64,000 bases of DNA from a virus. Below are positions 3,872-60,666 of this stretch, piece after piece. The stretch lies in the IMG/VR virus record IMGVR_UViG_3300010354_000069, positions 1 to 64,000 of that record. One strand, given 5' to 3'. The translations under genes were made by a program, and so were the position numbers. The notes under the pieces are model-generated. The model saw only the letters and a program-made list of their open reading frames with translations. It did no database searches and was not told where the DNA came from. Position 1 is the stretch's first letter. Each line of letters opens with the position of its first letter.

Positions 3872-3883
3872 GGTAAGTAACTC

Positions 3884-4785: not shown

Positions 4786-4786
4786 C

Positions 4787-10048: not shown

Positions 10049-10059
10049 CAAATAACACC

Positions 10060-38909: not shown

Positions 38910-39224
38910 ATGCCAAAGCCACACCCAATTCGGGACAAGTTCCTGAAGTACTTGCGCTCAGACATGGCTCACGACAAGCCATGGGTAGACGCTTCGGGTG
39001 TGTACACTTCCAATGAAGTGCGAGATGCGGTGAAGCGAATTTCCAAAACGGATCCTCTGCTTCACCGCATCATCGACTACTACATTCGCACCCGCATGCC
39101 TCGCATGAGAATTGCTGAGGCGGTTCACTACGATAGCAGCACTGTAAAGCGCAAACTCGACGACGCGGTCGATATCGTACTGCAACAACTCAAGCTGGGT
39201 GTCACCGGTGAACAAGAAGCCTAG
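38910..39224 (+). CDS. Helix-turn-helix protein (104 aa)
   Basis: This basic, helical protein has a central MRIAEAVHYDSSTVKRKLDDAVDIVLQQL segment that fits a sigma region 4 or MarR-like helix-turn-helix (helix, turn at HYDS, recognition helix). It may regulate phage transcription. It follows HU by eight bases, so it probably shares the HU promoter, and overlaps the next HTH-type gene by 26 bases. Family not specified. Confidence 0.65.
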   Translation: MPKPHPIRDKFLKYLRSDMAHDKPWVDASGVYTSNEVRDAVKRISKTDPLLHRIIDYYIRTRMPRMRIAEAVHYDSSTVKRKLDDAVDIVLQQLKLGVTGEQEA

Positions 39225-40064: not shown

Positions 40065-40556
40065 ATGCAGTTTTACGTCAGCGCTTTAGGACCTATAGAC
40101 ACAGGCCGCCCGCTTCACGCCGACGCCGGCAAAACCTTCAACCACGTAGGCATTCCTATCTGGTTTACTAGGGGTAGTTTGCACCGTGCTGTACACGTTC
40201 TAAATGGACCCTACCACGAACCTACTGGACTTTTCGTGGTGCAACCTAACGAAGTGCTGGTGTACTTTGAGGTAAAGCAGCCCCCAGCAGGTTCTTTGCA
40301 AGAGCAGACCATGGGACTGCGCCCGGTTACCTACGCAATTCTTAGTGTCGACCGCAACTTCGTGCATAGCAACAGTTTGCTGTATCAATCAGTAGATCCT
40401 GATGCAGACTTTGAAAAAGACGACGATATCGCCGTCTGGTTTGGAATGACCTTTCCGGCAACTATAGTAGGTAGATTCAGAAAGCCAACGGATACTTTTC
40501 AGCCTCCTAAAGAAACTCGTGGCCACATGTTGAAGGACTCCAACCTCTACAACTAG
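40065..40556 (+). CDS. Hypothetical protein (163 aa), end of rightward block
   Basis: ATG 40065 directly follows the previous TGA. The protein is alpha/beta with a GKTFNHVGIPIWF segment and a C-terminal basic stretch. It contains no nucleotide-binding loop or cysteine cluster. Its TAG stop (40554-40556) overlaps the TAG of the giant gene on the other strand (CTAG), so transcripts from both sides run into each other. Function unknown. Confidence 0.6.
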   Translation: MQFYVSALGPIDTGRPLHADAGKTFNHVGIPIWFTRGSLHRAVHVLNGPYHEPTGLFVVQPNEVLVYFEVKQPPAGSLQEQTMGLRPVTYAILSVDRNFVHSNSLLYQSVDPDADFEKDDDIAVWFGMTFPATIVGRFRKPTDTFQPPKETRGHMLKDSNLYN

Positions 40557-43500
40557 TTGGCTCGCTTTCGAGCAGCACTAGGAATATCTCTACTACCGCT
40601 GCGACCCTGTCTGTGATAGTCACGGTCCAGCGTGTCATCCTTGCCCTTCTTGCCAGCATGCTCTTGATGGATGACCACCTTCTTGCCCTGTGGGTCAACC
40701 TCTACCTTAGAAGTACGGCGCTGAGAGTGGTCTTTAGTGCTACCCGTCGGCACATCCTTTGCCCCGCTCTTGACACCACCGTGATTAGCCTTGGTATCGA
40801 CAACAACAGTTGCATTCTTTGACTTGGCGGGGGCTTCTTTACCATAGAACACGTTTTGAATGAACTCATCAACGTTTTCAATAACGTCATCGAGCACGTT
40901 ACGTTCATACTTGTCGGATACCACCGCTTCGACTTCGATTGAACCGCTTGAAGAAACGGTACCAGGTAGCGCTTGTTTGCTTGTGCTTGAAACACGTGCA
41001 AGCTCTTTAGTGCTACGAACGCTTAGTTCAGCAGCGGATTTTCCAACACGATACTTGGCGTCAATATGAGCATCAACAGATTTTACAAGGTGCTCGTTAA
41101 TTTTTCCGTAAGCCCAAATATTTGCAAGAACAATACCAATACCTGCAAAGGTTCCTGCGATAGCTCCAGGAAGAGCACCAACACCCCCAGCTAGTGTACC
41201 GGCGGCAGCGCCTGTCAAAGCCGTCTTTACAACGAAACCAGCAGCGGCACTAGCCAAGCCAAGAATGCCTATAGTGCTAAGACCGGCCACACCGTGCCCC
41301 AAAGCACGCTCTCTAGCAACTCTGTCAGTACCCGCCTCCCTGTATTCAACAAAGGTCTTGGATGACTCTACGACCACCATCAAAGGCAACGCAGCTTTGC
41401 TAGCTACTGCGGCAAGTTTCGGTGCCCACGTTGTAGCACCAAATCGCTTTGTAACAAGAGGAACCATGCGTCCGTAGCCTTCAAGTGCTGCTTGTACAGC
41501 AAACAATCCAGTGCTTGCCTTAAAGAAGACTTCCTGCTCAAAAGGCATTTCGTACCCTTGTTTATGCAGCTTTGCCTTTTGGTCTTCAAAATCCATCCAA
41601 CTTTTTACAGACATGGCAAGCATGAATAGAGGATTGCCAAGCTGTTGGCTGAACTCATAACTCTTCATGATCGATGTGTTGGCTAGCCGTTGTTGGTAGA
41701 TATCTCTGCGGATTCGAGCCTCTGCCTGTTCTTGGCGCGCCATAGGACGCTCTCTGGAAGTCTTGTCCAACCTTGAACGAATCTCTTCCTTGCGCTCCAC
41801 TGTACGTTGAATTCGCTCTTCAGCCTCCTGCAACCGCTCAAGAGGTTTGCCGGCAGTACCCAAGCGTGCCCAAATATCTTGCTTCAATTGTTTTTGACGG
41901 TTTATTTCTTCCTCACGCTCAATCAGGGTTTGCAAAGGACGCTCACCCCGTGTTGCCTCCGTACGGCTACGAACTTCTTCGCGTCTAGCTTCTGCTACCG
42001 ACTCGACTGCTCTGCGCTGCTTACGGGCGGCAATGAGCTCGCGCTGCCTATTTGCCAGAGTTTCTTGGTCAAGGCTATTCAAGCTGCGAGGCGTGGGGTT
42101 CTTGCGGAAGTCCCTGACAGCCCTACCCAGAACTAAGCGGCTTTCTTCATCCGCGGGTACGAAAGTACGCTTGGTGTAGCTAAAAGCTTGTGGAGTCTTT
42201 ACTGGCTCGTCCGTCACGCTACGCTGAGCGCTCACAACGGGATTGATGCTTGAAGCAGCAATGTCTTTTGATAGACGTGCTACTACTGCAACAAGCGATC
42301 TACCAGCTTTCAAGTATCTGTGTACGGCTTTTTCAACCAACTCGTCTGGATTTACAACGATTAGCTGGTCTACGTTACGCTCAACAGCACGCCAGCCTCT
42401 ACCCAGTAACATAGAATAGCCGGCATAACCAAGACTGGCAATTGTGCGTGCAAACAATCTGTCAGTAAAGAGGTAAATGTCCCTAGCACCTGTAGATGCA
42501 GCCCTGTAAGCAGCTTCTCTAGCTACGATGTATGTCCTACCGTCACGTTCAATAGTGGTATTGCCAAGGTGCTTAAGAGCGTCACCGTTATCAAACATGC
42601 TAGGCTTGTTATACTTGTCGACAAGCAATTCAGCCGCTATGCCCGCAAATAGCTCTCTAATACCTGTGGACATGAGCTCATGAATAGTAAAAGAAGTAAT
42701 ACCTGGTTTTTCTGATCTACGTCGTACTTCCTCAAGAGTACGCTCTGCGTTAGAGCGCAGTTCTAGGTAGGTCTGCTCTGCAAGTTTTCCGTTAGGGTCT
42801 TGAACACCCATTTCCCTGTACATGGACTTGATGATTTCTCGCCACTCCTGCTCATAAACTTCAGGAGCTGCCCTGAAATCCATGATTCTTGCGCCTGGCT
42901 TAAAACCGAAAGTCTGAACGTAGTGTGCGCTGCTGTAGTGCCCCCAACCGCTAGGTTTAATTCCTCGAACACCAGAGTAATCTGTGGCATCGTTTCTGGA
43001 AGGTGTCACGTAGAACCCGGCCCCTTCGGCCCAAGTGCCAGATACGTCCAACTCTGGAATTCCGTAAGGACGATAGTCCTGACCGTGGTAGTAAGCCCTG
43101 CTTGTAAGCCTGTCGGATATAGCTTGCTTTTCCGCAGTAAAATCAACTACACCAGAGCGGGTTGTGTGTGCATCGCGCGCAAGTGTTGAAGTTTCTGGCG
43201 CCGCTGTACGAAGCTCCATGTCAAGTAGTTCGTGCGGTAGCAGATTTGAAGCACTTTCAGTCTTTGGCAAAGACCTCCACTCGTATTTGGCCCTCTGTTC
43301 AGCCGCTCGAGTATCTGCCCGCATTTTCAGCATCAGCCTTAGCATGCGAGCTTCTTTTTGAGCAAACCTGATGAGACTGCTGATAGCTCCAGGTTGACTG
43401 CTTGCTCTTTGCAACCGGTCTCTGTACGTCTGGTAAGCAAGACGGCCAAGAACCGGTGCGGTTGCAAGTAGACTAGTGGCCAGAGTAGCAAAGTGCTCGG

Positions 43501-46500
43501 GCGTAATCAGAGTGCCAAAACCACTGGAAGCTTCTGCGGGCATTGTAGCGGCTGCAACCAAACCCAAGCCAGTAAAAGCAATGGACATTAGTCGTCCGGA
43601 GCGCCCGCCAAGAATGCCTTTACGCTCTGCCGCTCGTTTAGCCAAACGGCTTACACGGTCTGCGGTACTAGCAGCAACGTGTGAGTAAGGCTCTATATTC
43701 CTTGAATACTCGGCGGGTATTACTTCTGGTAGGCTGGTCTCAGAAATATTGAGAACCTTCGCTATCTTAGTTTTATAGATGTTTATAAGCTCTACAGCTT
43801 TGTCCATCTCAACAGAATCTTGTTTAGGAGCAAATTCTTGAACTAACCGCTTGGTATAAAAGTCAAGTCGTAAATCCATATCTCTGGTAATGTTACCAGC
43901 TGCATGCTTGCGTAGAATAGCATTTTTAATAAGGTCAACGCGCCTGTCTGTAAAGTATATCTGTTCGTCAGTAAGTCCAGCTGCATCCCTGAGGAAGTTG
44001 TACATAGTACGCTGTTCTGGATAAGCAGAGAAAACACTAGTAGTAGAGTTTACGTTAATACGCAACCTGCGGATAAGCTCTGGCATTACATTTATTGCTC
44101 TAGTTTCTACAGCAGCTTCTTCAAGGGCTAGTTCAGGCGCCGTAGCGTAATGCCCTTTTATATCGTAATCAAAGCCGAATCTAGCTAGAGCGCGCCTACG
44201 CGGGCTGTACTCGTGATGCACTTCGTGAGAAAGGATATGAAGAGTCGTTAACAAGCGTTCCAAAGACTTTTCTCTATATTCAAATGAAGCTACGCCAAGT
44301 TTATTTCTACTCTGACGTGCGATATCTAGTAGATACGGAGTATACTTATTTCTAACATTGATGTAAGCCATCATACCGCGCGGAGTGTGCATACCATCCC
44401 AGCTAAAAGGCATATTGGTCACTCCAATATCATTCAGCAGAATAACAGGAAGGGGTAGGATTCCTCTTCTTTGTTCTCTAGGTAAAGTACTTCTAACAGC
44501 CTTTGCAGTTTCGTACAAAGCAAATTGCATAGCAGTAAGTTGTTTTGCAGTATCAACAAAGTGTCTTAGGCTTGCAACCGATCTTGCACTTATAGTTTTC
44601 AAAAAATCTATTGTTTGTCTAGGTTTCAACACAAGGCTCGCAGTAAGCGCAGTAGCGGTAGCCCCAAAAACACCAGCTGCAGCAAATTTCAGGTAAGGTA
44701 CTAAAGTGTTAATCAGACTAGGGTAATGCGTAGTAATTTTACTAAGGTCGGGCTCCACCACAGTTTCAATCCTGAAGTGGGTTGCCGCTTCTGCAGGCAT
44801 TCCAGCGGCTAGTGCAAGGCCTACACCAAGTAACCCTAGTGCCAAAGGCTTGGCACCACGCTTGAGGCTTTGACGAGCCTTCTCAAGAAGCTTTGGTTGT
44901 AGAGCTTTGAGTGTGCTGCGAACGTAAGTGAAACCTCTTGCTACACTGACAGAAGATTTGTCTATGGTAGTAGTAAACAAATGGTGCGGTTTACGAGCAG
45001 AAGCAATAATGTCAGAAGAAGCTCTGTACCTGAGTAGCTGTACTGTGTATTCACTTAAATTTGCTAAGTTCAAAGCCCCCAACCGCTTTATACGTTTACC
45101 TGGAACAACAGCATAAACAGTTGTTTCTCTCGCTTCTTTGGAGTCCATTAATACAAGCTGACCATTTTCGTTGAAAATGGTATTACGTACTCCCGCGTAT
45201 CCTTGGCTTACAATACTGTCTCTAAGAGCTGTATGAACTGCAACCTCAGAGTTGAAGTTTGGTGGTAGACCTTCAGCAGCAGTAAAACGAGATGTCATAA
45301 ACTCTACTGCGCTCTTATAAAAGTATTCTACATTGTGTTTGTTGTCGGGAGTATCAAGAGCGTTAAGCAGACGCAGGAGCTCCGCATTGAACTTACTGCT
45401 AGTTTTTTCACTATCATTTACGTGAAGCAGCATAGTCTCAAAAGTGTGCTGCAACATTGTGCGTACTTCAGTCTTGTACACTTCAGCAGGCTGAGCAAAG
45501 TCTATAAACTGTGCAGTAGGGTTTAGCCTTACTTTTTGAACGATACCAAACTGCTTTTTGGCCTTTGTTACAAGGGCTCGTACAGTCTTGCCTGCTGAGT
45601 TTACAGTAAGACCCGCGTAGTCAAGGGCTTGGCCAACCGTTTCAGCCATGTAGTAACCACGGCCGCCCCACCAAGAGCCGTGTAAAGAGGCTTCAGGAAT
45701 ACCAGAAGGTGCATGAGTTTGACCGTGGTAGTACGTACGGTTGGTAATCTGCCTTGAGATATCTTTCTTCAAAGTGGTGAAATCCAAAGCGGTGCGCGTA
45801 GGCTCGGCCTCGGAAGCGGGAACAACACTGGACAGAGGTTGATTCTTATTGTTACCCCCAAAAAGCTTCTTGACTCCTTCCCAGCCAAGAATTCCGGCTG
45901 CAGAGAAACCAAGCTGACTCATCAGCAAAGCGTTGTCTGCGAGCGATGTGACGTGATGCCCAAACGGTAGCGTAGCTGCTTCAGCGGGCATTCCAGCGGC
46001 TAGAGCCAGACCTGTTCCTACCAGCAGGCCGAAGATACCGGAAGTGCGCTGCCCCCGCTCCCGCCTAGCTTTCTCTAGCTCAGCATCAATAACCGTCACC
46101 ATAGAACTATCGTTTAAAATTTCGAAAGAAGGTAAGTCACGTCGTGCAATAGAGCTCAAAGACCTGTGTAGCCTATCAAGAGCTTTTAAACTTTGTTTAT
46201 AGCTGCCTACAGGACGTCTAATGCTAAATCTGCTGCTATAGGAAGAAGGTACAAACACGTTTACAGCGTAGTTATTGATAACCTTTCTTATTCTTGTAGC
46301 TTGGCTCCGGTTAAGGCGAAACTTCTCTGCAATTTTTTCACTTAGTAGTTTTACACGATCCTCTTCGACATACAAAGTATCGCTTGTAATATCTGTAAGT
46401 GAAAGCAAGGCCCTTGTAAACATTCTTTGAAACTTATAGGTAGCGACTAAAGGAGCGGTACTTACAGTATGTCCAGTTAGCCTTCCTACAAATTCCCTAA

Positions 46501-49500
46501 GATGCTCTACGCTACCAATCTCAACAGTAGCTTCTTCTAAGGCATATAGCATAAGCTTGTTTTGTTTACTACCGTAATAGTAAGCTTTTACTATACTTGG
46601 TGCGTGCACTAGAGCACCTAGTAAACCAGCACGCTTAATGGCAGACCTTACCTTTTTCATGTAATAGTCTTTAGCAACAGACGGATTATACTGAGTAGCT
46701 ATAGTATTGCTAGCGCTATGTCTCAACTCGTGCAGTAGAGTTGAATAGCTATCACTTTCAGAAGCGGATAAAACTTTAGGTTGCTTATTAAAAGATCTTT
46801 CTAAGTCTTTTATGGCTTTATGCGATAAAACTATAAATCCACGATCCCTGCGTGGGTATCTGGTGTAATAAGCACCAGAAGCGCTACCAAGCCTTGTATA
46901 ATGTAGCCTTTGCGCTTCTTCGGGCGTTAAAAGATATTGAGCACCGGATGTAGCAGCACCAGGAAACATTTGAGCAAGTGTAGTCTTAGCTTTTCTTAGT
47001 AAGTTCTGTCTGTCTATAAAGTTTGGATCACTAGAAAGCGCTATTAGTTCTTTGTTATACGCATTTTCTAGAGCTTGCGGGCCAGAAAGCTTTCTGTTAG
47101 CAACAACCCTTAGTCTACGGTCTACTAAAAACAGTAAACCTGCACCTAGCGTTCCAGCCACCATCGTAGCAAAAACGGACAAACCACCCCCAGAAGCTGC
47201 GTGGTGTGCAATCCGCGTAGCGGCTTCTGCAGGTGCGCCCAGCAGTGCGATGCTACCCAGCGTAATTGCGGGAAGAATACTGCGCTTTGCAAGCTTTAAA
47301 GCAGTGCTCTTGACCTTGTAGTACAGATGACTGAGCTTTGGCAGAATACCTGGCGGGAGCGGTAGCTTTCCGGTTTTCTTGCCATAAACATTGGGATTGA
47401 GTCCACCGGTAAAAGAGGGCGGCGTCAAGTTTCCGGTGCTTGGGTTTAGCGGACTTGTACGTGAAGAAGTAAGCTCGCCCGTACCTCGAGAACCCGCTTG
47501 GCTACCACCCAATTCGCCAGAGTCACCAGTACCGCCGCTCAGTCCATCAGAGCCGGTACCTCCCTGCCCAAAAGGCAGAGACTGCTGACCGTTGCGCCCG
47601 GAGGGTGCGGTACCTCTAGGGCTTGGAGTATTGACCAAGAAAAAGATATTTTCCAAAGTACGGTTTACTAGGTCTTGTGTAGTTTTCTCAACGTCGATGT
47701 TGACTTCTTGGCTGGAACCCTTACGGCCAATTGTGACTCGGTCTCCAATCTTGTTAGTTTTTGCCAAGAGGCCACGACCGCGTCTACGGCCAGGTTTAAC
47801 GTTACGCGGAGCTTGTACAGGACCCCCTGAACCAAACTTCACGATATCCGTAAACATCTGTACGAGCTCTTCAGTCACCTGATTGACAATGGCCGTGCGG
47901 TCAACACCTTCCTTCAGGCCCGTACCTTCAATGAGGGCTTCTGCCAGGAACTGCAGTTGGTCGGTAGCACTGCCTTGGTGAGAAGCCAAACGAGCGAGTA
48001 AATTTGCCCTACGCTCTCCGTAATTGATACGCTTCCTGCCTGTGTCAGGGTCTTGGTCAAAACGACGATTGATGTGTTCAGCAACCTTTGCCAAGTGTTG
48101 CATTGCAGCAACACCTTGCTGCAGCCTACCTTCAGCCAAACCTGTGCGATCTTCACCAAAACCAAACGGCAGGCGTAAGAAATTCAACTGGGAAGCGCCA
48201 CGCATGACCCTTGCGCGCATGTTAAGTGCAGCACTGCGAAGTATAGATGCCTTTACAAGAGTTTCTACAGATGGAGCTGCGGATGTAAAAGTTTTACCGT
48301 CTTTTGTATGCCTATGCTTGGCAAAATCAAGAATTCCGCCGCTTTCCTTATCAAGTAGAAAAGTACTAGAAAGTAGATGCTCCAGCGCCTGTATAACGGA
48401 GTTGTTGATCTTGTTTAGGTCAGTGCCAATGTCTTTTGTACGCTCCTCCTCAATAAGACTGATCTGTTCAGTAACTTCGTGTAGACGAGCAGTATCCTCT
48501 GGGGTAAAGTTCTCAGTGTCTTTTTCAAGCTTACGCTCAAGCTTTTTCCTGATAAGCTCAAGTGTGCGTAGTATTTCTTTTCTTCCCGTAGTTTCGTCAT
48601 AGGTACGAATATTATCGTAGGCTTCTATGAATTCAGGAGAAACAAGAACGGCAGTAGTGGGATTTTTAGCTCCTGTCGCAACTACACCAACAACAGATAG
48701 CGGTGAAATAGTTCTATCCGCCGTTTCCGCAGCAAGAGTATGCCCGGCCAAATGTAATGAAACAGACCCTGCTGAATCTTCAAGAAGTATCCTTGAAGCT
48801 ACTGAATCAGGCCCAGCTGCAAGCTTTTCAAGAGTGCTGTTAAAACTTTTGACAAGACTATCAACACCTTTAACTGCATCGTGATCTTCAGGCTTGGGTA
48901 CATCAAGCACTGAAGAGGGCTTTCTCACTTTTTTCCAGATACGCCAAACCATAAAGGCTGTAAATGCACCGCTAATCAATCCAGAAATTGTACCGTAGGT
49001 AGTATCGTTATCATCATCTTCATCGTACCTATGCTTGCCGTCCTCATTGGCGTTCTTGTTTATATCTTGATAGTTACGCTTTTCATTACGCTCACCGGTG
49101 TCAGTGTACGCGTTTGGATTCAAAGTAATCCTTAATGGTTCAGTAGAGCCAGGTAGAAGCGCACCACGCCTTGTAAACTCTTGGTTGTACAGGGTCTCGG
49201 CAGACTTTGCTATGTTTTCTGCAAAACCAAAGGATTTCCACATTTTGGTGTAGGCGCCGGGCAAGCTATGCGCAGCATCCTTGTTCTTGCTGAGATACTC
49301 TTCAATTTGAGCCGCAGTAGGAACTTGAGTACTGCCCGTAGGCGTGGCAGTAGGCGTGTGCATAGGGTCAAGTACAGTACCTCCAGCACGTACTTCATAG
49401 TGTACGTGCGGGCCAGTCGAATGTCCGGTGCTACCTTGAATACCGATGCGCTGCCCGCGCACCAGAATGTCTCCTACGCTTACGCCGACTTCGTTGGCCG

Positions 49501-52500
49501 CATCATCTGCCAAGTGCCCGTACAGGATATCAACTGGCTTACCCTTGACTTTTAGTTCGGTCCGGACGATTACTACGTTGCCGTAACCACCCTTGACGCC
49601 CTTTTCAATAACTCGACCACCCACGAAAGCTACTACAGGAACATTAGTAGAGCCAGTCTTGGTGTCGTAGAACTGTATGTCTACACCTTGGTGCAGGTGT
49701 GTTCCACGGTCTCTTAGATAAGGGCTGGTGACGTTGTAGCTAATGCCGCGCTCCGTTGCCACAGGAAAACCGGTAAGGCTAGGAGTAGAGCGCAGAATAG
49801 CGGTGTGCAGCAGCTCAGCGCGCTGTTTTCTAGTAGGTGCGTACCCCAGAAAGTGACTAACTTGGTTGTAGGTTTCAGGATCGTCATAGGGCAGGTATTG
49901 CCCTCCTCTTGCCATTTGAGTTCTAACGCGCTGTGCAACATCCCTTGCTTCTGCCTTTGGCATCTTCAAGTTCTTGCTGATGTAAGCAGCAAGATCCGTT
50001 GTATTCTCGATGCCCTTGAGAGAGCCAAAGTGCTCGTTGATGTACTTGTAGTACTCTACCTGTTTGATGTAGCGCTGTGTTTCCAGCGGGAGTTTGCCAC
50101 CAGGCCTCAAAGAACGCATGAAGCCAGTAACACCAGCGTTGTACGCAGCGGCTACCTCAAGATCCGTAGGAGCGCGACCTAGCTTTTTGACTAGCTCACG
50201 ACGGAACTGAGCGAGAATATTGGCACCGGTGACAATACTGGTGCGGGGGTCAAAGAGGTTGAGCTTGCCCGTTGGGTCATGAGCTTCCGGAACAATTTGC
50301 ATCAAGCCCCTGGCATTCTTGGGGGAAACCATGCGCTCGTTGTAGTCACCGCCGGTTTCAGCCTGCATGATAGACCTGATAAAGCTCTCGGCCTCACCAG
50401 AGCGTTTGCTGGCTTCCGTGATAAAAGCCGAGTACTTCTCAGGAACCGGGCCAGCACTGCCTGTGCGTACTGGTCCACCGGTTACTTCTGCAAGAGTAGA
50501 CAGAATAGTACGTCTGCCAGGAACCGCACCTTCAGCTCTTTCGGCAGCACTTGTTCTGCTGCGAACTTCAAATCCACTCCAACCACCGGTGAACATGTAG
50601 TTGTACATGGCGTTAGCACCACCCAGTACAGCCGTTTCATACATCAGAGCGCGGCGGTGCAGTTCACCCATGATAATCTGATCTACTGACGGTACGGGCG
50701 CAAACTTGAAAGCCCTCTTGGCAGACACATTCCCGCCACCGGTTCTGGGCCTAGCCATGTACATGGAGGCAAAAGACATGTTCAAGAGATTGTCGTTGGA
50801 ACTAGACATCAGTCCGGTGTTTGAAAAAGACTGAAGTACTTCAGGCGCAACTACGGTAAGTAGTGACGCGCCAATACCACGCTTTGTAAAACGGACCTGT
50901 TCGGCAATTTCTAGCTTGGCCGCGGTAGACATCCAAGCGCGCTCGGAAGCAACACCGTAGAAGATGGGAGAGTACGAACGCCACAGTGCGTGCCTGGCAG
51001 AAAAGCTTGTCTCTCCGGCATCGCCTGACTCCAGAAGTCCAGCTTTAATTTGGGTGTTTACAAAGGTATCTGCCCAGTAGTTAAGCAAACCAGCAGCAAA
51101 TTTTAGTGGCTTGTCAGAAACCTTCTTGTATTCCTTGTTCAGGGTCATGGACAGCAGGTAATCTGCCGACTGATTCAAGTAACCGGCTGCACCGACGTTA
51201 AACGTTCTAAATATCGCGGATACGCCGGTATTCAACTGTTTCAGGGCATCTACCTTATCAGCGTGTTCCTGCACCCAGCCAATACTGTCGATAAGACCGC
51301 CAATAAAGAACTTGTTTACACGGTCACCCCAGTTAAGTTCTTTACCCTCTTTCTCTTTTGTTAGTGCTTCTTCGTACTGAGACTTACCTACTGCACTGCT
51401 TAGTGAGAATGATGCCCAGCCTACAAGGCCACCAACAAGTAGACCCGCAAAGCCTGCAACCCGACCACCTTTTGCTGCCCCAAGCGCTATTGCTCCTGCA
51501 GCAGCTAACTCTGAGGTTTTCTTGGTTGCGAGCAGTGTACCGCCAAGAACAAAGGTTTTCCAAAGTTCAGAAGCACCTTCCTCACGAAACGTTTGTCTGG
51601 CCTCTCTAGAAATTGTTGGATCCGCAGCAATTGCAATGTTTGATACTGCACCGTAGGCACCGGAGAGGAGCATCGGCCTTACAATAGCTTTGTCAGCAAT
51701 CTTCATGATTCCAGAAATACCGCCTAATGCAAACGCACCAAGTCCAATACCATACAAGCCAAATGTCACGGAATTTTCATAAGATTCAGTTGTATCAAGT
51801 AGACTCTTGCTAAGAAGCGCCAAAGACGCTAGAAGAGCTGTTGCTCTAAATCCGTAACCCAGACCAGTCATAAAGCTGGAGAATCTTGTAATCCTAGTTG
51901 CGCTTTGAATGTTCTTCGACGCAATCCGCTCTTCCTGGGCGGTGCTAGCGGTGTGGTGGCTTGGATCTGCTGTGCCTATGGAGCCAGCACGAACCTCGTG
52001 TATACCGACGGCTGGAGGAGGTGGGGGAGGTGTACCACCAAGTTGCGGTTCGGGGACGTGAGCACCAACCGAACGAAGTTTCCAGAACGTGAAAGTCTTT
52101 CTGATGCTGCCAACAAACGTAGAAGCTCTCAAACCCGCGCGGTTCAAGAAGCCAGGCATATCTACAGGTTTAAGGCCCATGACGTCGTCAAAGTCACGGA
52201 ACACGCCAAAAACAGTACGCTCAAATAGGTTTATTTCCTTAGCAAAGTCACCACCCGCAGTTAGTCTTGTACGAATGCCCTGCAGTTCGTTCATGGCGGT
52301 GAGGTAGCGCTTACCTGGAGACCACCCAGGCGGTGGTGCTGGTGAACCAGGGCCGTGCCCGGCAAAAGATTCCAGAATAATTTCAAGGCGCCTGATAGTT
52401 CCCAGCGTTCTGGTTACATCCTTGGTTTCTGCAAGCGCTTTGATATCGCCATAAGTTTCAATGACAGCTCTAGCAATTTGTTGGTAGCCCAGAGCACGGG

Positions 52501-55500
52501 CTCGACCCGAAATGACACTACCTCTTGGCAATATTCCCTCGCCAAATGGCTCGCCGTTTGCCGCGCCAAGCATCGAGAAGCCCCCACCCGGTCTGGGCAT
52601 CCTCAGTACCGAAGCGTCGGAAGGGTTATACTCAAGAGTAAGGGGATCCAACACCTTGCCCGCTGACGTCACCTCTACAGCGCGCATCAAGCGACGGATG
52701 TCAAAACCCTTAAGGGGATCGTCTGCCTTAAGATTCTTCGTTACGTTGTAAGCCGCGCGCAAGGCAGGATCCCTACTAATAGTCAGCAAGGTCCTAGCGG
52801 CTGCAATCCCGTGGCCGGCAAACATTGCAGCTGTACCCAAAGCAAAACCAAGCCAGATGGCACCAATTCGAGTCTGCTGGTTACTGTTGACTTCGCTGTT
52901 GGAAAAGTTTAGCAAGAACTCTTCAGGACTACTGTTTCTACTTAACGGACGAAGAATTTTCTTGTTCATGCCAAAAGGCAATGTATCAAAAGTATCAGAA
53001 TCATCTTCCATCTCTGTGATAGGCATTCCAGCTGCCTGCTGTGCAGCCTTGTGCCCCTCTATGTAAGCCATGATGCCCCTGTAAGTAGGAGACTGCTCCA
53101 AGGTGGCTAAGAATTCTTGATCAATGCCATCAGGCAATTTAAACAGTTCCACCTCTTTGGCTTTTTCATAAAACCTGTTTGCGTACCCAGCGTATTCCTT
53201 GGCTAAAGCAGCAACATCGTAGGAATCGTACGGTTTCATTCCAGGTGCTGTACGAAGCGGGTTGACGATCAGTGGTCTAACGCCCTGAACCAAGTTGTTC
53301 TGAGTATCGTAGCGACCCATAGCATAGTGCGTGTAGTAAGCCTGTTTTGATAGGCGAGAGTATCCGCCTACATATGCTTTTTCACCACCCAAGTAGTCGT
53401 TCATCTCTGCTGGCCAAGCTACAAGTGCCGTTCGCGCAAGAGCCTGACGGTTGCGGAGTGCCAGTTTAAGACCCGGCGACAGGTTGTATACCGGCGACTC
53501 CGACGAGAACATGCGCCCCATGAACGCCGGCTTACGAGCAGGAGCAAATCCTGTCAGCATAGTGTAATCGCCGTAGGTTGCCATCGCCAGCGAGGTCCCG
53601 CCGAGTACTTTGTTCTGGGGATTCTGCGGGCGCACGGCTGCAATCTTGTTTGACGCAACAGTAAACAGATTACCGAAGCCCATCGAGAAGCGACCTTTGA
53701 TTCGTGTAAAGCCGGTGGTATCCTCATCGCGCTCGGTTTGCTGGGCTGCGGCATAACCATGCTGCATGGCCACGATTTCAGGCCCTTGAATAACACTCTC
53801 GCTGCTGAAAGCCGAAAGTACCTTTCGTATGCTCCAGTTGATTCGCTGTGCCAAGCCCTTCGGTGTGACAGGGAATTTGCCAACAATAGGGTTCATTTCT
53901 ATGGCAAATGAATCGGTTGGTCTTGAGATAATGATTGGCTGTACATCACTTATCTTGCGCTCGCCGCTATTGGCATTTACAAGAACACGAAACCCACTTT
54001 CCATAAACTTGTTGAAAGTGCTGGTAACAGCGCCTAACGGAGTATTCGGATCGTTGTAATCAATCTTGTACCGGTTTATCTGAGATTGTATGTAAGAACC
54101 CGGCGTACCCTCATAGTTACGCTGGTGCAGATTGTAAACAATACGTCCAGCCTCAAACACCATCAATGACAAACCAATAGTAGCCAAAGATTGACCTGCG
54201 CGTACTGGAGCCATGAAACCACTAGAGAACGACCCACCTAAAACCTTTGACGCGGTACCGGTAAGAACACCCACGGGTGCAGTCACGGGTAGAGTAACCA
54301 CCCGCATGAGCGCTCGCATGGCTACACCGGGTCCCCTGAGCAGAGTACCAACAACGCGGCGAGCGCTAATTCCGCTAGCACCGCTAGTAGTCTCTGAAGT
54401 AAGTATGTTGCCAATATTTGTTAGCGGATCAAGAGAAACTCTTGTATCCTGACCATACTTCAGGTACCCGGTTACGCGCTCGAACAGCGAGGAAGCGGGA
54501 GGCTTAACTCCAGTCAATAAAAGCTCTCGAGCCTGGTAGTGTTTCTTGGCAGCTAGGTTAGCCAGTGCAAACGTCGTTCCTACTGCAAGTGCAGTAAGGG
54601 TTGGCCCAGCAATAGCGGCAGCACCTACATTGAGCTGTGCCACTGCTTCCACAAGTGTCGATGGCTTGTAGCCTAAGGACATGATGTTCAGAGCAATTTT
54701 GGAAGCAAAGCTTGAAGCGCTATTTTCTTTATTACTTACTGCGTCGTACAGCAAACGATCAAAGTAGTTGTTGGATTCCTTTACGCCCCTTAGCCAGTAC
54801 TCTAGCTGCTTGTAGCCGCGCTTTTCCATTCGATAGAAAGGCATCGACATAGTGCCAGATCCTTGAAGGGGCAGCGGTGTGATGAAGGATATAGCGTAAC
54901 TGGTGCGACCGCCCTGTGTAGCTGCGCTAAGGAAAAGTGCCGGACCACCCATCCAGCCTATACGCAGGCCGTCAATAGACATCTGATTGATTTCAGACTT
55001 GTAGGCAGTAACCGAGAAGTTACGGAAAATGTCTAATGTCTTTTGAATTGTGCCTTGTACAGCCCCAGGATCACCGGTTATTTGCCCTCTAAAACCTTCG
55101 TTGTCCAATTGGCGCATGCGGTCACTAGCCGTCATTGCTGCTGCTTGCTGTTGCGTGACTACCTTCCAGCTGAAATTGTCTCTGTCAGCCTGAATCATCT
55201 TGACGGTGTTGCGGTACAAGGCAGTCGGCGTATTGGCAATGAACTCGGTTACAGACTTCAGCGCCCCGCGAACGCTATTGAATTGCCTGAAACCCTGCGA
55301 GTACATGAAGGTAAGAGCACCAACTTCCTCCTGGGTGCCATCAGCTTTGGTAACAACAACGTTTCTAGGAACATTGAACATCTTGTTGGCTTGTCTGAAG
55401 CTGGTAAAACCTCGTCCAGACAACAGCTCTGTCAGACCTCCCGCAACGCTGCCACCGACAATACCGGCAAGGAAGGTACCAAAACCTCTACCACGGGTTA

Positions 55501-58153
55501 CTGCCATACCAGCGCCAAAACCCAGCAGCGACGCAATCTTCGCGGAAGTGCCCTGATGCTGGAAGACTTGCATTGGGTAGCCAATACCCAAAGAGAAGTA
55601 TCCTAGAGCTGAGCTTGTGACTTCACCCAGGCTCTGAGGCAAGAGATAGCTAGGAGTGAGATAGGAGACCTCTCTTTTGTAAGTCTTTCCTTCATTGATT
55701 ACACGCTCTGCTGCAATCTGGTCACTAAGAAGAAGAGGCTTACTAGCTAGCATGTCGCCAATAAAACCACTTATGACCGTAGTAGCCGCAAAAGCTCGTA
55801 CAGCATTGCGGATGCCAACACGCTCGGGACTTACAGTACTGTAGCCGTAAGCACTTGCCCTAGCATTTGCAAAATACTGGTTGGCCTTTCTGAAGGAGTT
55901 AGCAGCCTGACGAAACCTGCCAGAAACCAAATGTTTTACAGCAAGAGTATTCTCGACTTGTCCTGCTCTGACGTACACATCATCGTGTACTGTAATGTCT
56001 TCCACAAACAGATTCATTAGCGGGATCTTGGAGCTTAGCTTCGAGTACGCTTGTGTTACTTTACTCAAGCTCATTCGGGCTGTAAGTTCTACGGCATCCG
56101 GTTTAGCCATTCGCGCCGCTCTGAGGGAAGGCTCGTCAAGAGCTTCCATTACAGCGTTGTAGTATGGTCTAGCCTCCTTGAGCCCGGTAAGGCTTTCGAC
56201 CATAGGATAAACCGTGTGCTGGAAAGTAAACCTGGCGACGGACATGGAAAGCTGTTTGAGCTTGCCAAAAGCCGACATTGTCCCGCTTACACCGCTCGCA
56301 TACAGCTTGTATCCCACACTGTTTGAAGTAGCGGCATTTGCCATTACCTTTGCCTGATACTGACGCGCGCTTGAGACAATGTAGTCTTCAGCACTTGCAC
56401 TAATCGAGTGCAGAAAGTGCGTCGAGTAGTACAGCATAAGAAACGAGCCCAAATTGCTGCCGGCATCAACCAAGTAACGGGCCATCTCTGCGTAGGGCTC
56501 GGTTTTCATGCTGGGAGCTTGAGGGCTGTAACCACCTGAATAGAGGAATGATTCCAACCCGGTCATGTAGCGGTGGTGGTCTAAGTAACGACCGGCATTC
56601 ACGATGGCGCTACCAAGAAGCCCGCGATTACCGCGCTGCTCGACCATATAGCTGGCCTCGGCGCCGTAAACTTTACCCACGTAAGCTTTGAGCATGTAGC
56701 CCGCTGTAGGAGCTTGCATCAGGTAGTCAAGAGCCCGCACCTCAAGAGGCATGGTGCTGTAGTCCATGCGTTCACCTGTAGAACGCTCATAGTTGCTTGC
56801 GTACAAGTGCGACAGAATGCCACCGCGGTCGCGCTTAGGTGAGTAAGTAACTCGCCCGCCATACCCAATGACGTCGTAATCAGTGTTACGCCGAGTCTTG
56901 ACCATGTCCCCGTAAAACTGACTGGTCGCCATGTACATGGCAAAGTGCATGAAATTTGCGTCGTACAGAACACGTGGGTCAATCGTGTATTGCCAGCGCT
57001 GACCGGCGCCCGGTTTGGGCATATCCGCTGCTCTGGGCATCAGCGCGTCAACCATGAAGTCGTAACGCCTAGAACTGGGTGGCCTGACGCCGCGCACCGC
57101 TTTGGACCGATCAGGTCTTGCTGCGAACTTCTTGAACTCGCCGTCTTTAGCAATTAGCTCGTGCACGTACTCGGCGTAGCCAGCATCCTCAAGCTTGGTT
57201 GAAATCATCGTGGAGTAGCCCCTAGGGTTACCCATACTCATGCTTTTGGAAGCTCGGGCATCGCCAAGAAAACTGACGGCGTTCTTGCCGTGACCGACAG
57301 CCATCTGATTACGGTGAGAAGGGTTTCTGGTAATTGCCACTTCCAACGAGGGATACTTTTTGGAAGCTTCTGTAAGCTGTTCTATGACGCGGGCTTGGGT
57401 ATTGATGTCGCTGTCGGCTGTACCACCTATGAGTACGTGCGTGCGAGCACCCAAACGGCTTCTGTTGATGATCCTGTTGACGACACCCTCGTCGCTCAGT
57501 GTCGTGTAGGTAAGCGAGATGTCCTCAGTAGTTTCCAGTTGACGGTAGATCTCGTTGAAGTAAGTTGAGCGGTCACCCGCAGAGATGACCTTGAAGTGCT
57601 TGGTAGAAACCAGCGGCAGAGCCCTTTGCTCGCTTAGAGCTCTCTCATTCGCATAACCCGGAATTCCTGCACGAGTAGCAAGAAATTTCCACTCGCGGAT
57701 CATTTCTTTGTTGTCCGTCAAGTAGTACTCGTTCTGCTGCAGTTGTCTGCCCGTTCCAAATAACTTGGATCCTTTTAGGCGGCTGCTGGCTTTTTCACCC
57801 ATGCCGCTGGCTGTCATGTTAGCCGTGCCGCCGTAAACCCACTCGTGCCCCTGCTGGTCTACAAGGATACCTTGCTTGTAGTGGGTAAAGTCCTCGTTGG
57901 CTTTCATGTCCAACTCGATAACTTGCCCAGGGTACCTGCGTACGGCCTCTGCAGTATTTGCAGAGTTGCTGGAACGACCCCTAGGAGCTACGTATAGTTT
58001 GCGCTCACCAGGTCCGCTGAGAAAGCTCTGCAACGTCTTGGAATCAGGATCTACGTCAAACGAAGTTCGTACGAACGAACGAGCAGTAGCAGCAAGCCTG
58101 CTGTGGCTTTGCTGGTTTTCCTGCCCGTAGTGCAGTAACGAGCTGCGATCCAA
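40553..58153 (-). CDS. Giant multidomain virion-type polyvalent protein (5,866 aa)
   Basis: One unbroken frame of 17.6 kb starts at TTG 58153, immediately after the terminase stop, with AGAAGGAC upstream. Domains in order: PLD-like phosphodiesterase (1-330; HYK...D and GTAN motif at 91-112, second HKD degenerate near 280), then long helical, Ala/Gly-rich, partly membrane-like regions. A soluble lytic transglycosylase follows (catalytic Glu2599), then an M23 endopeptidase (His2821, Asp2825, HxH 2916-2918). A Gly/Ser/Pro linker (~3500-3590) leads to a duplicated membrane-hairpin / HExxH peptidase / membrane-hairpin / ART-fold array (3610-5300). A charged coiled coil (~5330-5490) and basic tail close the protein. 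It is probably packaged in the virion and delivered into the host. A tape-measure role is possible. Confidence 0.85.
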   Translation of the reverse strand: MDRSSLLHYGQENQQSHSRLAATARSFVRTSFDVDPDSKTLQSFLSGPGERKLYVAPRGRSSNSANTAEAVRRYPGQVIELDMKANEDFTHYKQGILVDQQGHEWVYGGTANMTASGMGEKASSRLKGSKLFGTGRQLQQNEYYLTDNKEMIREWKFLATRAGIPGYANERALSEQRALPLVSTKHFKVISAGDRSTYFNEIYRQLETTEDISLTYTTLSDEGVVNRIINRSRLGARTHVLIGGTADSDINTQARVIEQLTEASKKYPSLEVAITRNPSHRNQMAVGHGKNAVSFLGDARASKSMSMGNPRGYSTMISTKLEDAGYAEYVHELIAKDGEFKKFAARPDRSKAVRGVRPPSSRRYDFMVDALMPRAADMPKPGAGQRWQYTIDPRVLYDANFMHFAMYMATSQFYGDMVKTRRNTDYDVIGYGGRVTYSPKRDRGGILSHLYASNYERSTGERMDYSTMPLEVRALDYLMQAPTAGYMLKAYVGKVYGAEASYMVEQRGNRGLLGSAIVNAGRYLDHHRYMTGLESFLYSGGYSPQAPSMKTEPYAEMARYLVDAGSNLGSFLMLYYSTHFLHSISASAEDYIVSSARQYQAKVMANAATSNSVGYKLYASGVSGTMSAFGKLKQLSMSVARFTFQHTVYPMVESLTGLKEARPYYNAVMEALDEPSLRAARMAKPDAVELTARMSLSKVTQAYSKLSSKIPLMNLFVEDITVHDDVYVRAGQVENTLAVKHLVSGRFRQAANSFRKANQYFANARASAYGYSTVSPERVGIRNAVRAFAATTVISGFIGDMLASKPLLLSDQIAAERVINEGKTYKREVSYLTPSYLLPQSLGEVTSSALGYFSLGIGYPMQVFQHQGTSAKIASLLGFGAGMAVTRGRGFGTFLAGIVGGSVAGGLTELLSGRGFTSFRQANKMFNVPRNVVVTKADGTQEEVGALTFMYSQGFRQFNSVRGALKSVTEFIANTPTALYRNTVKMIQADRDNFSWKVVTQQQAAAMTASDRMRQLDNEGFRGQITGDPGAVQGTIQKTLDIFRNFSVTAYKSEINQMSIDGLRIGWMGGPALFLSAATQGGRTSYAISFITPLPLQGSGTMSMPFYRMEKRGYKQLEYWLRGVKESNNYFDRLLYDAVSNKENSASSFASKIALNIMSLGYKPSTLVEAVAQLNVGAAAIAGPTLTALAVGTTFALANLAAKKHYQARELLLTGVKPPASSLFERVTGYLKYGQDTRVSLDPLTNIGNILTSETTSGASGISARRVVGTLLRGPGVAMRALMRVVTLPVTAPVGVLTGTASKVLGGSFSSGFMAPVRAGQSLATIGLSLMVFEAGRIVYNLHQRNYEGTPGSYIQSQINRYKIDYNDPNTPLGAVTSTFNKFMESGFRVLVNANSGERKISDVQPIIISRPTDSFAIEMNPIVGKFPVTPKGLAQRINWSIRKVLSAFSSESVIQGPEIVAMQHGYAAAQQTERDEDTTGFTRIKGRFSMGFGNLFTVASNKIAAVRPQNPQNKVLGGTSLAMATYGDYTMLTGFAPARKPAFMGRMFSSESPVYNLSPGLKLALRNRQALARTALVAWPAEMNDYLGGEKAYVGGYSRLSKQAYYTHYAMGRYDTQNNLVQGVRPLIVNPLRTAPGMKPYDSYDVAALAKEYAGYANRFYEKAKEVELFKLPDGIDQEFLATLEQSPTYRGIMAYIEGHKAAQQAAGMPITEMEDDSDTFDTLPFGMNKKILRPLSRNSSPEEFLLNFSNSEVNSNQQTRIGAIWLGFALGTAAMFAGHGIAAARTLLTISRDPALRAAYNVTKNLKADDPLKGFDIRRLMRAVEVTSAGKVLDPLTLEYNPSDASVLRMPRPGGGFSMLGAANGEPFGEGILPRGSVISGRARALGYQQIARAVIETYGDIKALAETKDVTRTLGTIRRLEIILESFAGHGPGSPAPPPGWSPGKRYLTAMNELQGIRTRLTAGGDFAKEINLFERTVFGVFRDFDDVMGLKPVDMPGFLNRAGLRASTFVGSIRKTFTFWKLRSVGAHVPEPQLGGTPPPPPPAVGIHEVRAGSIGTADPSHHTASTAQEERIASKNIQSATRITRFSSFMTGLGYGFRATALLASLALLSKSLLDTTESYENSVTFGLYGIGLGAFALGGISGIMKIADKAIVRPMLLSGAYGAVSNIAIAADPTISREARQTFREEGASELWKTFVLGGTLLATKKTSELAAAGAIALGAAKGGRVAGFAGLLVGGLVGWASFSLSSAVGKSQYEEALTKEKEGKELNWGDRVNKFFIGGLIDSIGWVQEHADKVDALKQLNTGVSAIFRTFNVGAAGYLNQSADYLLSMTLNKEYKKVSDKPLKFAAGLLNYWADTFVNTQIKAGLLESGDAGETSFSARHALWRSYSPIFYGVASERAWMSTAAKLEIAEQVRFTKRGIGASLLTVVAPEVLQSFSNTGLMSSSNDNLLNMSFASMYMARPRTGGGNVSAKRAFKFAPVPSVDQIIMGELHRRALMYETAVLGGANAMYNYMFTGGWSGFEVRSRTSAAERAEGAVPGRRTILSTLAEVTGGPVRTGSAGPVPEKYSAFITEASKRSGEAESFIRSIMQAETGGDYNERMVSPKNARGLMQIVPEAHDPTGKLNLFDPRTSIVTGANILAQFRRELVKKLGRAPTDLEVAAAYNAGVTGFMRSLRPGGKLPLETQRYIKQVEYYKYINEHFGSLKGIENTTDLAAYISKNLKMPKAEARDVAQRVRTQMARGGQYLPYDDPETYNQVSHFLGYAPTRKQRAELLHTAILRSTPSLTGFPVATERGISYNVTSPYLRDRGTHLHQGVDIQFYDTKTGSTNVPVVAFVGGRVIEKGVKGGYGNVVIVRTELKVKGKPVDILYGHLADDAANEVGVSVGDILVRGQRIGIQGSTGHSTGPHVHYEVRAGGTVLDPMHTPTATPTGSTQVPTAAQIEEYLSKNKDAAHSLPGAYTKMWKSFGFAENIAKSAETLYNQEFTRRGALLPGSTEPLRITLNPNAYTDTGERNEKRNYQDINKNANEDGKHRYDEDDDNDTTYGTISGLISGAFTAFMVWRIWKKVRKPSSVLDVPKPEDHDAVKGVDSLVKSFNSTLEKLAAGPDSVASRILLEDSAGSVSLHLAGHTLAAETADRTISPLSVVGVVATGAKNPTTAVLVSPEFIEAYDNIRTYDETTGRKEILRTLELIRKKLERKLEKDTENFTPEDTARLHEVTEQISLIEEERTKDIGTDLNKINNSVIQALEHLLSSTFLLDKESGGILDFAKHRHTKDGKTFTSAAPSVETLVKASILRSAALNMRARVMRGASQLNFLRLPFGFGEDRTGLAEGRLQQGVAAMQHLAKVAEHINRRFDQDPDTGRKRINYGERRANLLARLASHQGSATDQLQFLAEALIEGTGLKEGVDRTAIVNQVTEELVQMFTDIVKFGSGGPVQAPRNVKPGRRRGRGLLAKTNKIGDRVTIGRKGSSQEVNIDVEKTTQDLVNRTLENIFFLVNTPSPRGTAPSGRNGQQSLPFGQGGTGSDGLSGGTGDSGELGGSQAGSRGTGELTSSRTSPLNPSTGNLTPPSFTGGLNPNVYGKKTGKLPLPPGILPKLSHLYYKVKSTALKLAKRSILPAITLGSIALLGAPAEAATRIAHHAASGGGLSVFATMVAGTLGAGLLFLVDRRLRVVANRKLSGPQALENAYNKELIALSSDPNFIDRQNLLRKAKTTLAQMFPGAATSGAQYLLTPEEAQRLHYTRLGSASGAYYTRYPRRDRGFIVLSHKAIKDLERSFNKQPKVLSASESDSYSTLLHELRHSASNTIATQYNPSVAKDYYMKKVRSAIKRAGLLGALVHAPSIVKAYYYGSKQNKLMLYALEEATVEIGSVEHLREFVGRLTGHTVSTAPLVATYKFQRMFTRALLSLTDITSDTLYVEEDRVKLLSEKIAEKFRLNRSQATRIRKVINNYAVNVFVPSSYSSRFSIRRPVGSYKQSLKALDRLHRSLSSIARRDLPSFEILNDSSMVTVIDAELEKARRERGQRTSGIFGLLVGTGLALAAGMPAEAATLPFGHHVTSLADNALLMSQLGFSAAGILGWEGVKKLFGGNNKNQPLSSVVPASEAEPTRTALDFTTLKKDISRQITNRTYYHGQTHAPSGIPEASLHGSWWGGRGYYMAETVGQALDYAGLTVNSAGKTVRALVTKAKKQFGIVQKVRLNPTAQFIDFAQPAEVYKTEVRTMLQHTFETMLLHVNDSEKTSSKFNAELLRLLNALDTPDNKHNVEYFYKSAVEFMTSRFTAAEGLPPNFNSEVAVHTALRDSIVSQGYAGVRNTIFNENGQLVLMDSKEARETTVYAVVPGKRIKRLGALNLANLSEYTVQLLRYRASSDIIASARKPHHLFTTTIDKSSVSVARGFTYVRSTLKALQPKLLEKARQSLKRGAKPLALGLLGVGLALAAGMPAEAATHFRIETVVEPDLSKITTHYPSLINTLVPYLKFAAAGVFGATATALTASLVLKPRQTIDFLKTISARSVASLRHFVDTAKQLTAMQFALYETAKAVRSTLPREQRRGILPLPVILLNDIGVTNMPFSWDGMHTPRGMMAYINVRNKYTPYLLDIARQSRNKLGVASFEYREKSLERLLTTLHILSHEVHHEYSPRRRALARFGFDYDIKGHYATAPELALEEAAVETRAINVMPELIRRLRINVNSTTSVFSAYPEQRTMYNFLRDAAGLTDEQIYFTDRRVDLIKNAILRKHAAGNITRDMDLRLDFYTKRLVQEFAPKQDSVEMDKAVELINIYKTKIAKVLNISETSLPEVIPAEYSRNIEPYSHVAASTADRVSRLAKRAAERKGILGGRSGRLMSIAFTGLGLVAAATMPAEASSGFGTLITPEHFATLATSLLATAPVLGRLAYQTYRDRLQRASSQPGAISSLIRFAQKEARMLRLMLKMRADTRAAEQRAKYEWRSLPKTESASNLLPHELLDMELRTAAPETSTLARDAHTTRSGVVDFTAEKQAISDRLTSRAYYHGQDYRPYGIPELDVSGTWAEGAGFYVTPSRNDATDYSGVRGIKPSGWGHYSSAHYVQTFGFKPGARIMDFRAAPEVYEQEWREIIKSMYREMGVQDPNGKLAEQTYLELRSNAERTLEEVRRRSEKPGITSFTIHELMSTGIRELFAGIAAELLVDKYNKPSMFDNGDALKHLGNTTIERDGRTYIVAREAAYRAASTGARDIYLFTDRLFARTIASLGYAGYSMLLGRGWRAVERNVDQLIVVNPDELVEKAVHRYLKAGRSLVAVVARLSKDIAASSINPVVSAQRSVTDEPVKTPQAFSYTKRTFVPADEESRLVLGRAVRDFRKNPTPRSLNSLDQETLANRQRELIAARKQRRAVESVAEARREEVRSRTEATRGERPLQTLIEREEEINRQKQLKQDIWARLGTAGKPLERLQEAEERIQRTVERKEEIRSRLDKTSRERPMARQEQAEARIRRDIYQQRLANTSIMKSYEFSQQLGNPLFMLAMSVKSWMDFEDQKAKLHKQGYEMPFEQEVFFKASTGLFAVQAALEGYGRMVPLVTKRFGATTWAPKLAAVASKAALPLMVVVESSKTFVEYREAGTDRVARERALGHGVAGLSTIGILGLASAAAGFVVKTALTGAAAGTLAGGVGALPGAIAGTFAGIGIVLANIWAYGKINEHLVKSVDAHIDAKYRVGKSAAELSVRSTKELARVSSTSKQALPGTVSSSGSIEVEAVVSDKYERNVLDDVIENVDEFIQNVFYGKEAPAKSKNATVVVDTKANHGGVKSGAKDVPTGSTKDHSQRRTSKVEVDPQGKKVVIHQEHAGKKGKDDTLDRDYHRQGRSGSRDIPSAARKRAN
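42870..47300 (-). repeat. Internal duplication within giant gene: two [TM-peptidase-TM-ART] units
   Basis: Four membrane-hairpin segments with the motif (A)(G)(M)PAEA(A/S) lie near residues 3642, 4056, 4453 and 4873. They alternate with HELRH (3808) and HEVHH (4643) peptidase-like domains and two YYHGQ ART-like domains (His4143, His5023). Peptidase copies share ALEEA-x-VE downstream; ART copies share GIPE, G-x-GYY/FY, A-x-DY and GYAG blocks. DNA at the second and third hairpins is also similar (GCATTCCAGCGGCTAG at both). This region is AT-richer than the rest of the gene. Confidence 0.7.
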
Positions 58154-60665: not shown

Positions 60666-60666
60666 T

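What the first reader, a model, noticed from the sequence alone, without database searches (positions are those of the whole stretch)
40553..58153. A 5,866-residue phage protein combining cell-wall enzymes with effector-like domains
One open frame of 17.6 kb carries a PLD-like domain, lytic transglycosylase, M23 endopeptidase, two HExxH-like domains, two ART-like domains and four membrane hairpins. Phage polyvalent proteins described by Iyer and colleagues carry ART, peptidase and nuclease domains injected with the genome. Here such an array appears fused to wall-penetrating enzymes. It would explain delivery and action within one polypeptide. The domain motifs are seen in the sequence; delivery is inferred.
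Basis: partly seen in the sequence, partly recalled or inferred. Interest (0 to 1): 0.92.

Follow-up and report, generated by a model that had tools for sequence, protein, structure and literature searches.

The report
Giant modular phage cell-entry protein
A large freshwater phage carries one 5,866-residue protein, next to its DNA-packaging gene, that joins a nuclease-like head, two wall-cutting enzymes and a duplicated set of membrane-anchored enzyme-like domains; relatives hold a giant protein in the same place with different enzymes swapped in, which suggests a rapidly changing tool for entering and subduing the host cell.

Summary
The 17.6-kb open frame is real. SLT and M23 domains are statistically certain and keep their active-site residues. 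The N-terminal PLD domain is confirmed through a relative. The two HExxH and two ART-like domains are visible as motifs in an internal duplication, [hairpin-HExxH-hairpin-ART]x2, but match no profile, and AlphaFold models were uninformative. The gene lies directly behind TerL and faces the replication cluster. A 205-kb relative (L060, TerL 53%, 28 syntenic genes, median about 41% identity) has a 3,973-aa giant in the same slot. Its PLD and core are homologous (E 7e-54), but its wall enzyme differs (glucosaminidase instead of SLT; no M23) and it lacks the HExxH/ART cassette. LMM01-type cyanophages carry 2.9-5.5-kaa giants there, headed by PLD or SNase. I read it as a virion-delivered entry protein of rapidly exchanged modules. 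Packaging and injection are inferred. Fusion of wall enzymes to ART/metallopeptidase arrays is not unprecedented: Iyer's polyvalent proteins already include it. What is new is the lineage-wide slot, the module swapping, and four signal-peptide-like hairpins (AxA motif, purifying selection) bracketing the putative effectors. New variant of a known kind.

The parts
40553..58153 (-). giant gene, 5,866 aa, TTG start
   Evidence: start supported by L060
57074..58153 (-). N-terminal PLD-family domain, aa 1-360; HKD1 H91xK, GGTANMTAS 108-116; second HKD degenerate or ambiguous
50594..57073 (-). conserved core, aa 361-2520, homologous to L060 giant; weak but above-control profile match to LMM01 gp120-type core
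50114..50476 (-). SLT lytic transglycosylase, aa 2560-2680
49349..49756 (-). M23 metallo-endopeptidase, aa 2800-2935
47099..47296 (-). membrane hairpin 1 with PAEA motif at aa 3641
46079..47086 (-). HExxH domain 1 (HELRH 3808, ALEEATVE 3871)
45869..46066 (-). membrane hairpin 2, PAEA aa 4056 (second helix marginal)
44879..45832 (-). ART-like domain 1 (YYHGQ 4141, GRGYYM 4164)
   Evidence: no profile match (48, 72)
44618..44866 (-). membrane hairpin 3, PAEA aa 4453
43619..44611 (-). HExxH domain 2 (HEVHH 4643, ALEEAAVE 4676)
43418..43606 (-). membrane hairpin 4, PAEA aa 4872 (second helix marginal)
42254..43201 (-). ART-like domain 2 (YYHGQ 5021, GAGFYV 5044)
   Evidence: no profile match (48, 72)
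41114..41446 (-). C-terminal hydrophobic region aa 5570-5680
58154..60133 (-). terminase large subunit, directly upstream
60093..60701 (-). endolysin-like gene upstream of TerL
37466..38539 (+). PD-(D/E)XK exonuclease of the facing replication cluster, conserved flank
38910..39224 (+). conserved small flank gene (67% identical in L060; homologue of LMM01 gp124)
39199..39807 (+). conserved flank gene (homologue of LMM01 gp123)
40065..40556 (+). flank gene converging on the giant (43% in L060)

Best explanation
It is the phage's version of a TerL-adjacent giant protein found in one lineage of large (about 150-250 kb) freshwater phages, best explained as a virion-packaged entry (ejection) protein. 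The conserved N-terminal half (nuclease-type PLD head plus a long core of about 2,100 residues) is the structural part. Two peptidoglycan enzymes behind it open the wall during DNA entry, and the four hydrophobic hairpins then seat the C-terminal part in the inner membrane. By the positive-inside rule this leaves the two HExxH and the two ART-like domains on the cytoplasmic face, where they would cleave or modify host proteins, the HExxH domains possibly also cutting the polyprotein. Shown: open frame, SLT, M23, PLD homology, core homology, conserved gene slot, module exchange, internal duplication, charge pattern. Inferred: packaging, injection, topology, and the activity and fold of the HExxH and ART-like domains.
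For: Both flanks are orthologous in LMM01 (gp118 TerL ... gp120 ... gp123-125), Microcoleus phage My-WqHQDG and other contigs. Closest relative L060 (205 kb): TerL 53%, 28 syntenic genes with median about 41% identity, a 3,973-aa giant at the same spot, own aa 2-1202 E 7e-54 and aa 2261-2792 E 6e-19, then PF01832 glucosaminidase (6e-21) in place of SLT and no HExxH/ART cassette. Heads or accessory domains differ across the slot: PLDc_2 (2e-9, 3e-21), SNase (2e-15, 2e-6, 1e-9), GDSL lipase (6e-23), two HExxH in the 5,486-aa L033 giant. Hairpin flanks carry 5/5/6/5 K+R before and 5/3/4/3 after, loops 1/0/3/0. PAEA motif copies 2 and 3: 8 synonymous, 0 nonsynonymous changes in 14 codons. Precedents: P23-45 5,002-aa tape measure with a fused RNA polymerase, full length in virions (PMC10770324); polyvalent proteins (PMC5512222).
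Against: No virion proteomics for any member was found. No profile supports ART or a zincin; PolyVal Pfam models do not match. Both AlphaFold jobs failed (pLDDT 33 and 32). Homology of the core to the LMM01 gp120 type is weak (hhalign 46.1 vs at most 28.5 in 20 shuffles, probability only 20%), and single-sequence tests were not above controls. The contig is a fragment, so the tail genes are not all seen.
Confidence: 0.6

Rival explanations
1. It is a giant tail tape-measure protein carrying wall enzymes and fused enzymatic domains, like P23-45 gp96, and is delivered because tape measures exit through the tail.
For: SLT and M23 with hydrophobic segments are common in tape measures; the best tblastn hits to the M23 region include Staphylococcus phage tape measures. 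A 5,002-aa tape measure with a fused enzyme exists (PMC10770324).
Against: Position next to TerL and the replication cluster, not in a tail operon. Proline 4.2% vs 1.3% in a cyanophage tape measure. Length is not kept between close relatives (5,866 vs 3,973 aa). The LMM01 group has a separate predicted tail-length protein and tails of only about 230-260 nm (PMC9927357).
Confidence: 0.15
2. It is a late, non-virion protein (host-wall degradation from inside, or host takeover) that is never injected.
For: An endolysin-like gene lies just upstream of TerL; no member is shown to be packaged.
Against: A separate endolysin exists; no protein of this size is needed for lysis; it is co-oriented with TerL and virion-type genes; wall enzymes plus membrane segments in one late protein are typical of virion-associated lysins (established knowledge).
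Confidence: 0.15
3. The C-terminal repeats are not enzymes: HExxH is fortuitous and the YYHGQ region is a structural or adaptor repeat, so only PLD, SLT and M23 are catalytic. (This can be true together with the best explanation's delivery part.)
For: No profile or PDB match; the ART strand-5 acidic position is not obvious in either copy.
Against: HExxH plus a downstream EEAxVE in both copies although the copies are only 26-30% identical elsewhere; HExxH also occurs twice in the independent L033 giant.
Confidence: 0.3

Closest known systems
Polyvalent proteins (Iyer et al. 2017, PMC5512222)
   Same: very large multi-enzyme polypeptides of phages; wall hydrolase, zincin-like and ART-type domains together, sometimes in several copies; late gene context
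   Different: the PolyVal ART and MPTase profiles do not match; SLT plus M23 rather than lysozyme; membrane hairpins bracket the domains; embedded in a conserved PLD-core giant
Ma-LMM01 gp120 / phrog_29513 and My-WqHQDG WOL31340 (unannotated giants)
   Same: same slot between TerL and the PD-(D/E)XK end of the replication cluster; nuclease-type head (PLD in WOL31340, HxK motif in gp120); giant size
   Different: 2,898-4,151 aa, no SLT/M23, no HExxH, no ART-like cassette; sequence similarity only at profile level
L060 giant, IMGVR_UViG_3300037466_003648 (3,973 aa)
   Same: clear orthologue: PLD head and core, same flanks
   Different: glucosaminidase instead of SLT, a cysteine-peptidase-like stretch (motif level only) instead of M23, no HExxH/ART cassette
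P23-45 gp96 tape measure with fused RNA polymerase (PMC10770324)
   Same: about 5,000-residue virion protein carrying an enzyme into the host
   Different: a tape measure; a single, unrelated enzyme

Membership tests
Iyer polyvalent proteins | several unrelated enzyme domains in one phage polypeptide | tested here: met
   PLD, SLT and M23 established
Iyer polyvalent proteins | MPTase-PolyVal (PF18818) zincin | tested here: not met
   no match at E<=10; HExxH + EEAxVE motifs only
Iyer polyvalent proteins | ART-PolyVal (PF18760) with H-Y-D site | tested here: not met
   no match at E<=10; H and Y motifs present, acidic residue not identified
Iyer polyvalent proteins | injected with the genome | not testable with these tools
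   needs virion proteomics
TerL-adjacent giant (LMM01 gp120 slot) | same flanking genes on both sides | tested here: met
   TerL; PD-(D/E)XK, 38910 and 39199 homologues
TerL-adjacent giant (LMM01 gp120 slot) | core sequence homology (phrog_29513) | tested here: inconclusive
   no PHROG hit; single sequence not above controls; own+L060 profile 46.1 vs <=28.5 in shuffles; L060g 92-445 vs L033 E 2e-7
L060-type giant (orthologue) | homologous PLD head and core in a syntenic genome | tested here: met
   E 7e-54 and 6e-19; 28 syntenic genes
PLD superfamily | HxKx4Dx6GSxN motifs, PLDc_2 profile | tested here: met
   HKD1 clear, HKD2 degenerate or ambiguous; profile via L060g; direct PLDc_2 search of own record negative
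SLT (PF01464) | profile and catalytic Glu | tested here: met
Peptidase M23 (PF01551) | profile and HxxxD/HxH | tested here: met
Tail tape-measure protein | length matched to the tail, in tail operon, helical low-Pro | tested here: inconclusive
   Pro 4.2%, not in a tail operon; tail length unknown, contig incomplete

The most novel reading that the evidence does not exclude
A phage-delivered polyprotein in which four internal signal-peptide-like hairpins (basic n-region, hydrophobic helix, A-x-A end) insert the array into the host inner membrane. Host signal peptidase I then cuts it into separate pieces, leaving two metallopeptidase and two ADP-ribosyltransferase modules anchored on the cytoplasmic face. 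Host secretion processing would thus replace a phage protease as the means of releasing injected effectors.
Probability: 0.15. Interest if true: 0.85.

Novelty: new variant of a known kind. Interest (0 to 1): 0.62.

Why it matters
It points to an unannotated slot for giant proteins in large freshwater phages, including culturable Microcystis phages. Between close relatives this is among the least conserved genes and the one whose wall enzymes and effector-like domains are exchanged, the pattern expected at the host-contact front. LMM01-type isolates make packaging directly testable, and the swaps list candidate host-takeover domains in phages of bloom-forming cyanobacteria.

Tried and rejected
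AlphaFold of aa 1-433 (single sequence, pLDDT 33) and of ART-like domain 2 with copy 1 as second row (pLDDT 32): unusable, so no fold search was run. Relatives of the C-terminal cassette: none in phages, plasmids, IMG/VR by pattern, or ten related virus records. PDB sequence searches: nothing credible (the 8t49 antibody hit is taken as chance). Direct single-sequence homology to the gp120 core looked suggestive but did not beat reversed or shuffled controls; it became supportable only with L060. Homology to the second LMM01 giant gp080: none. TerL search of bacterial genomes: none. Read-through of TerL's TAG (same frame, TAG-TTG) was considered and set aside: TerL is complete, a Shine-Dalgarno-like site is present, and L060 has its own ATG there. 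C-terminal homology of own 5500-5866 to L060g: not above controls.

Full report
Setting. The window is part of a 72,243-base IMG/VR virus record. DNA polymerase A, clamp, clamp loader, helicases, primase, ribonucleotide reductase and a PD-(D/E)XK exonuclease run on the + strand up to 40.5 kb. The giant gene, TerL, an endolysin-like gene and unknown, probably late genes run on the - strand. TerL is closest among isolates to freshwater cyanophages (Microcystis LMM01 group, Microcoleus My-WqHQDG; 31-33% identity), and the polymerase to My-WqHQDG and Pseudanabaena phages. A cyanobacterial host is therefore plausible, not shown; the relative L060 has 63-64% GC, so other hosts are possible.

The observation. 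The 5,866-codon frame is intact. It starts at TTG right after TerL's TAG, with GAAGGA upstream. Pfam gives SLT (4e-12) and M23 (1e-16) with canonical active-site residues. PLD is not found directly but is secured through the L060 giant. HExxH and ART-like domains have no profile support. Their best evidence is internal: the C-terminal part contains a duplication, [hairpin-HExxH-hairpin-ART-like]x2 (aa 4113-4182 vs 4992-5062, 44%, 7e-15; 3871-4076 vs 4676-4896, 26%, 4e-6), in which HExxH, ALEEAxVE, YYHGQxxxPxGIPE and GxG[YF]Y are kept while most else has changed.

The slot. In LMM01, TerL gp118 is followed by gp119 and gp120 (2,898 aa), then genes on the opposite strand. In My-WqHQDG, TerL is followed by two small genes and a 4,151-aa giant. 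Contigs L005, L034, L036 and L033 carry giants of 2,963, 3,215, 3,570 and 5,486 aa that are homologous to gp120 and WOL31340 directly or through one another. Own genes 37466, 38910 and 39199 have homologues on the far side of such giants, and TerL on the near side. So the own giant sits in the same slot.

The nearest relative. A broader TerL alignment found L058-L061 (53% TerL identity). The 205-kb record behind L060 is syntenic with the own phage over 28 genes (median about 41% identity). Its giant, 3,973 aa, starts right after TerL. It aligns with own aa 2-1202 (24%, 7e-54), 1412-1589 (1e-10) and 2261-2792 (6e-19). At about 24% over its longest aligned part it is less conserved than each of the 28 other compared genes (lowest 26.7%). 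Past the core the enzymes differ: PF01832 glucosaminidase (6e-21) stands where own has SLT. A linker around own aa 2690-2790 is still recognisable (hhalign score 36). The HExxH/ART cassette is absent from the L060 giant and not found anywhere in ten related virus records.

Link to the LMM01 type. Single-sequence comparison of own with gp120-type cores is not above shuffled controls, which I report as a negative. With L060 added, the profile score is 46.1 against at most 28.5 in 20 local shuffles, although hhalign's own probability is only 20%. L060g also hits the L033 PLD/core junction (2e-7). Positional orthology is strong; sequence homology to this wider set is moderate.

Modules across the slot. 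Heads: PLDc_2 in L033 (3e-21), My-WqHQDG (2e-9) and L060 (3e-6); SNase in L005 (2e-15), L036 (2e-6) and L062 (1e-9). L033 adds a GDSL lipase (6e-23) and two HExxH sites at its N-terminus. The own protein adds SLT, M23 and the duplicated cassette. A nuclease-type head is the recurring feature in the members with an identified head; wall, lipid and putative effector modules come and go.

Membrane hairpins. Each copy of the cassette is bracketed by hydrophobic helices ending in MPAEA[AS] or APAEAA. The 15 residues before carry 5-6 K+R, those after the second helix 3-5, and the loops 0-3, which predicts loops outside and domains inside. Between hairpins 2 and 3 the 14 codons of the motif differ by 8 synonymous and 0 nonsynonymous changes, so the peptide itself is constrained. 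A-x-A at the outer end of a helix with a basic start is the signal-peptidase I pattern (established knowledge); cleavage is speculation. Second helices of hairpins 2 and 4 are marginal (1.18 and 1.35 Kyte-Doolittle).

How it most likely works. Packaged with the genome (inferred from slot, size and precedents); PLD head and core as structural or nuclease part; wall enzymes cut peptidoglycan on entry; hairpins seat the C-terminal part in the inner membrane; HExxH and ART-like domains act at the cytoplasmic face. Precedents are polyvalent proteins (PMC5512222) and the P23-45 tape measure with RNA polymerase, found full length in virions (PMC10770324). The main rival is a tape measure; arguments against it are position, proline content and non-conserved length.

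Verdict. Observation largely right, ART and HExxH unproven; interpretation partly supported; novelty lies in the slot, the swapping and the hairpin-bracketed cassette, not in the mere fusion.

Noticed in passing
L053:3701-14389 (LMM01 gp080); L054:10618-20000 (continues beyond); L055:13003-19900 (continues in L056): A second, unrelated class of giant (3,562-4,839 aa), also with an N-terminal PLD motif, occurs in LMM01 (near the major head protein gene) and in two relatives; it is homologous among them but not to gp120 or the own giant.
   Followed up: partly
L036:2714-7735; L026:7124-11470: TerL lies in unusually long open frames (1,674 and 1,449 aa), suggesting an N-terminal fusion or an intein.
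   Followed up: no
window 8786-11434: A DUF2201 putative metallopeptidase/VWA-like gene next to an AAA_5 (MoxR-like) ATPase gene in a phage.
   Followed up: no
L059 and L060, giant region: Long antisense open frames (up to 2,071 aa) oppose the giant; probably a by-product of 63-64% GC.
   Followed up: no
window 58151-58156: TerL stop TAG is directly followed, in the same frame, by the giant's TTG start; read-through would fuse TerL to the giant but is not needed.
   Followed up: partly
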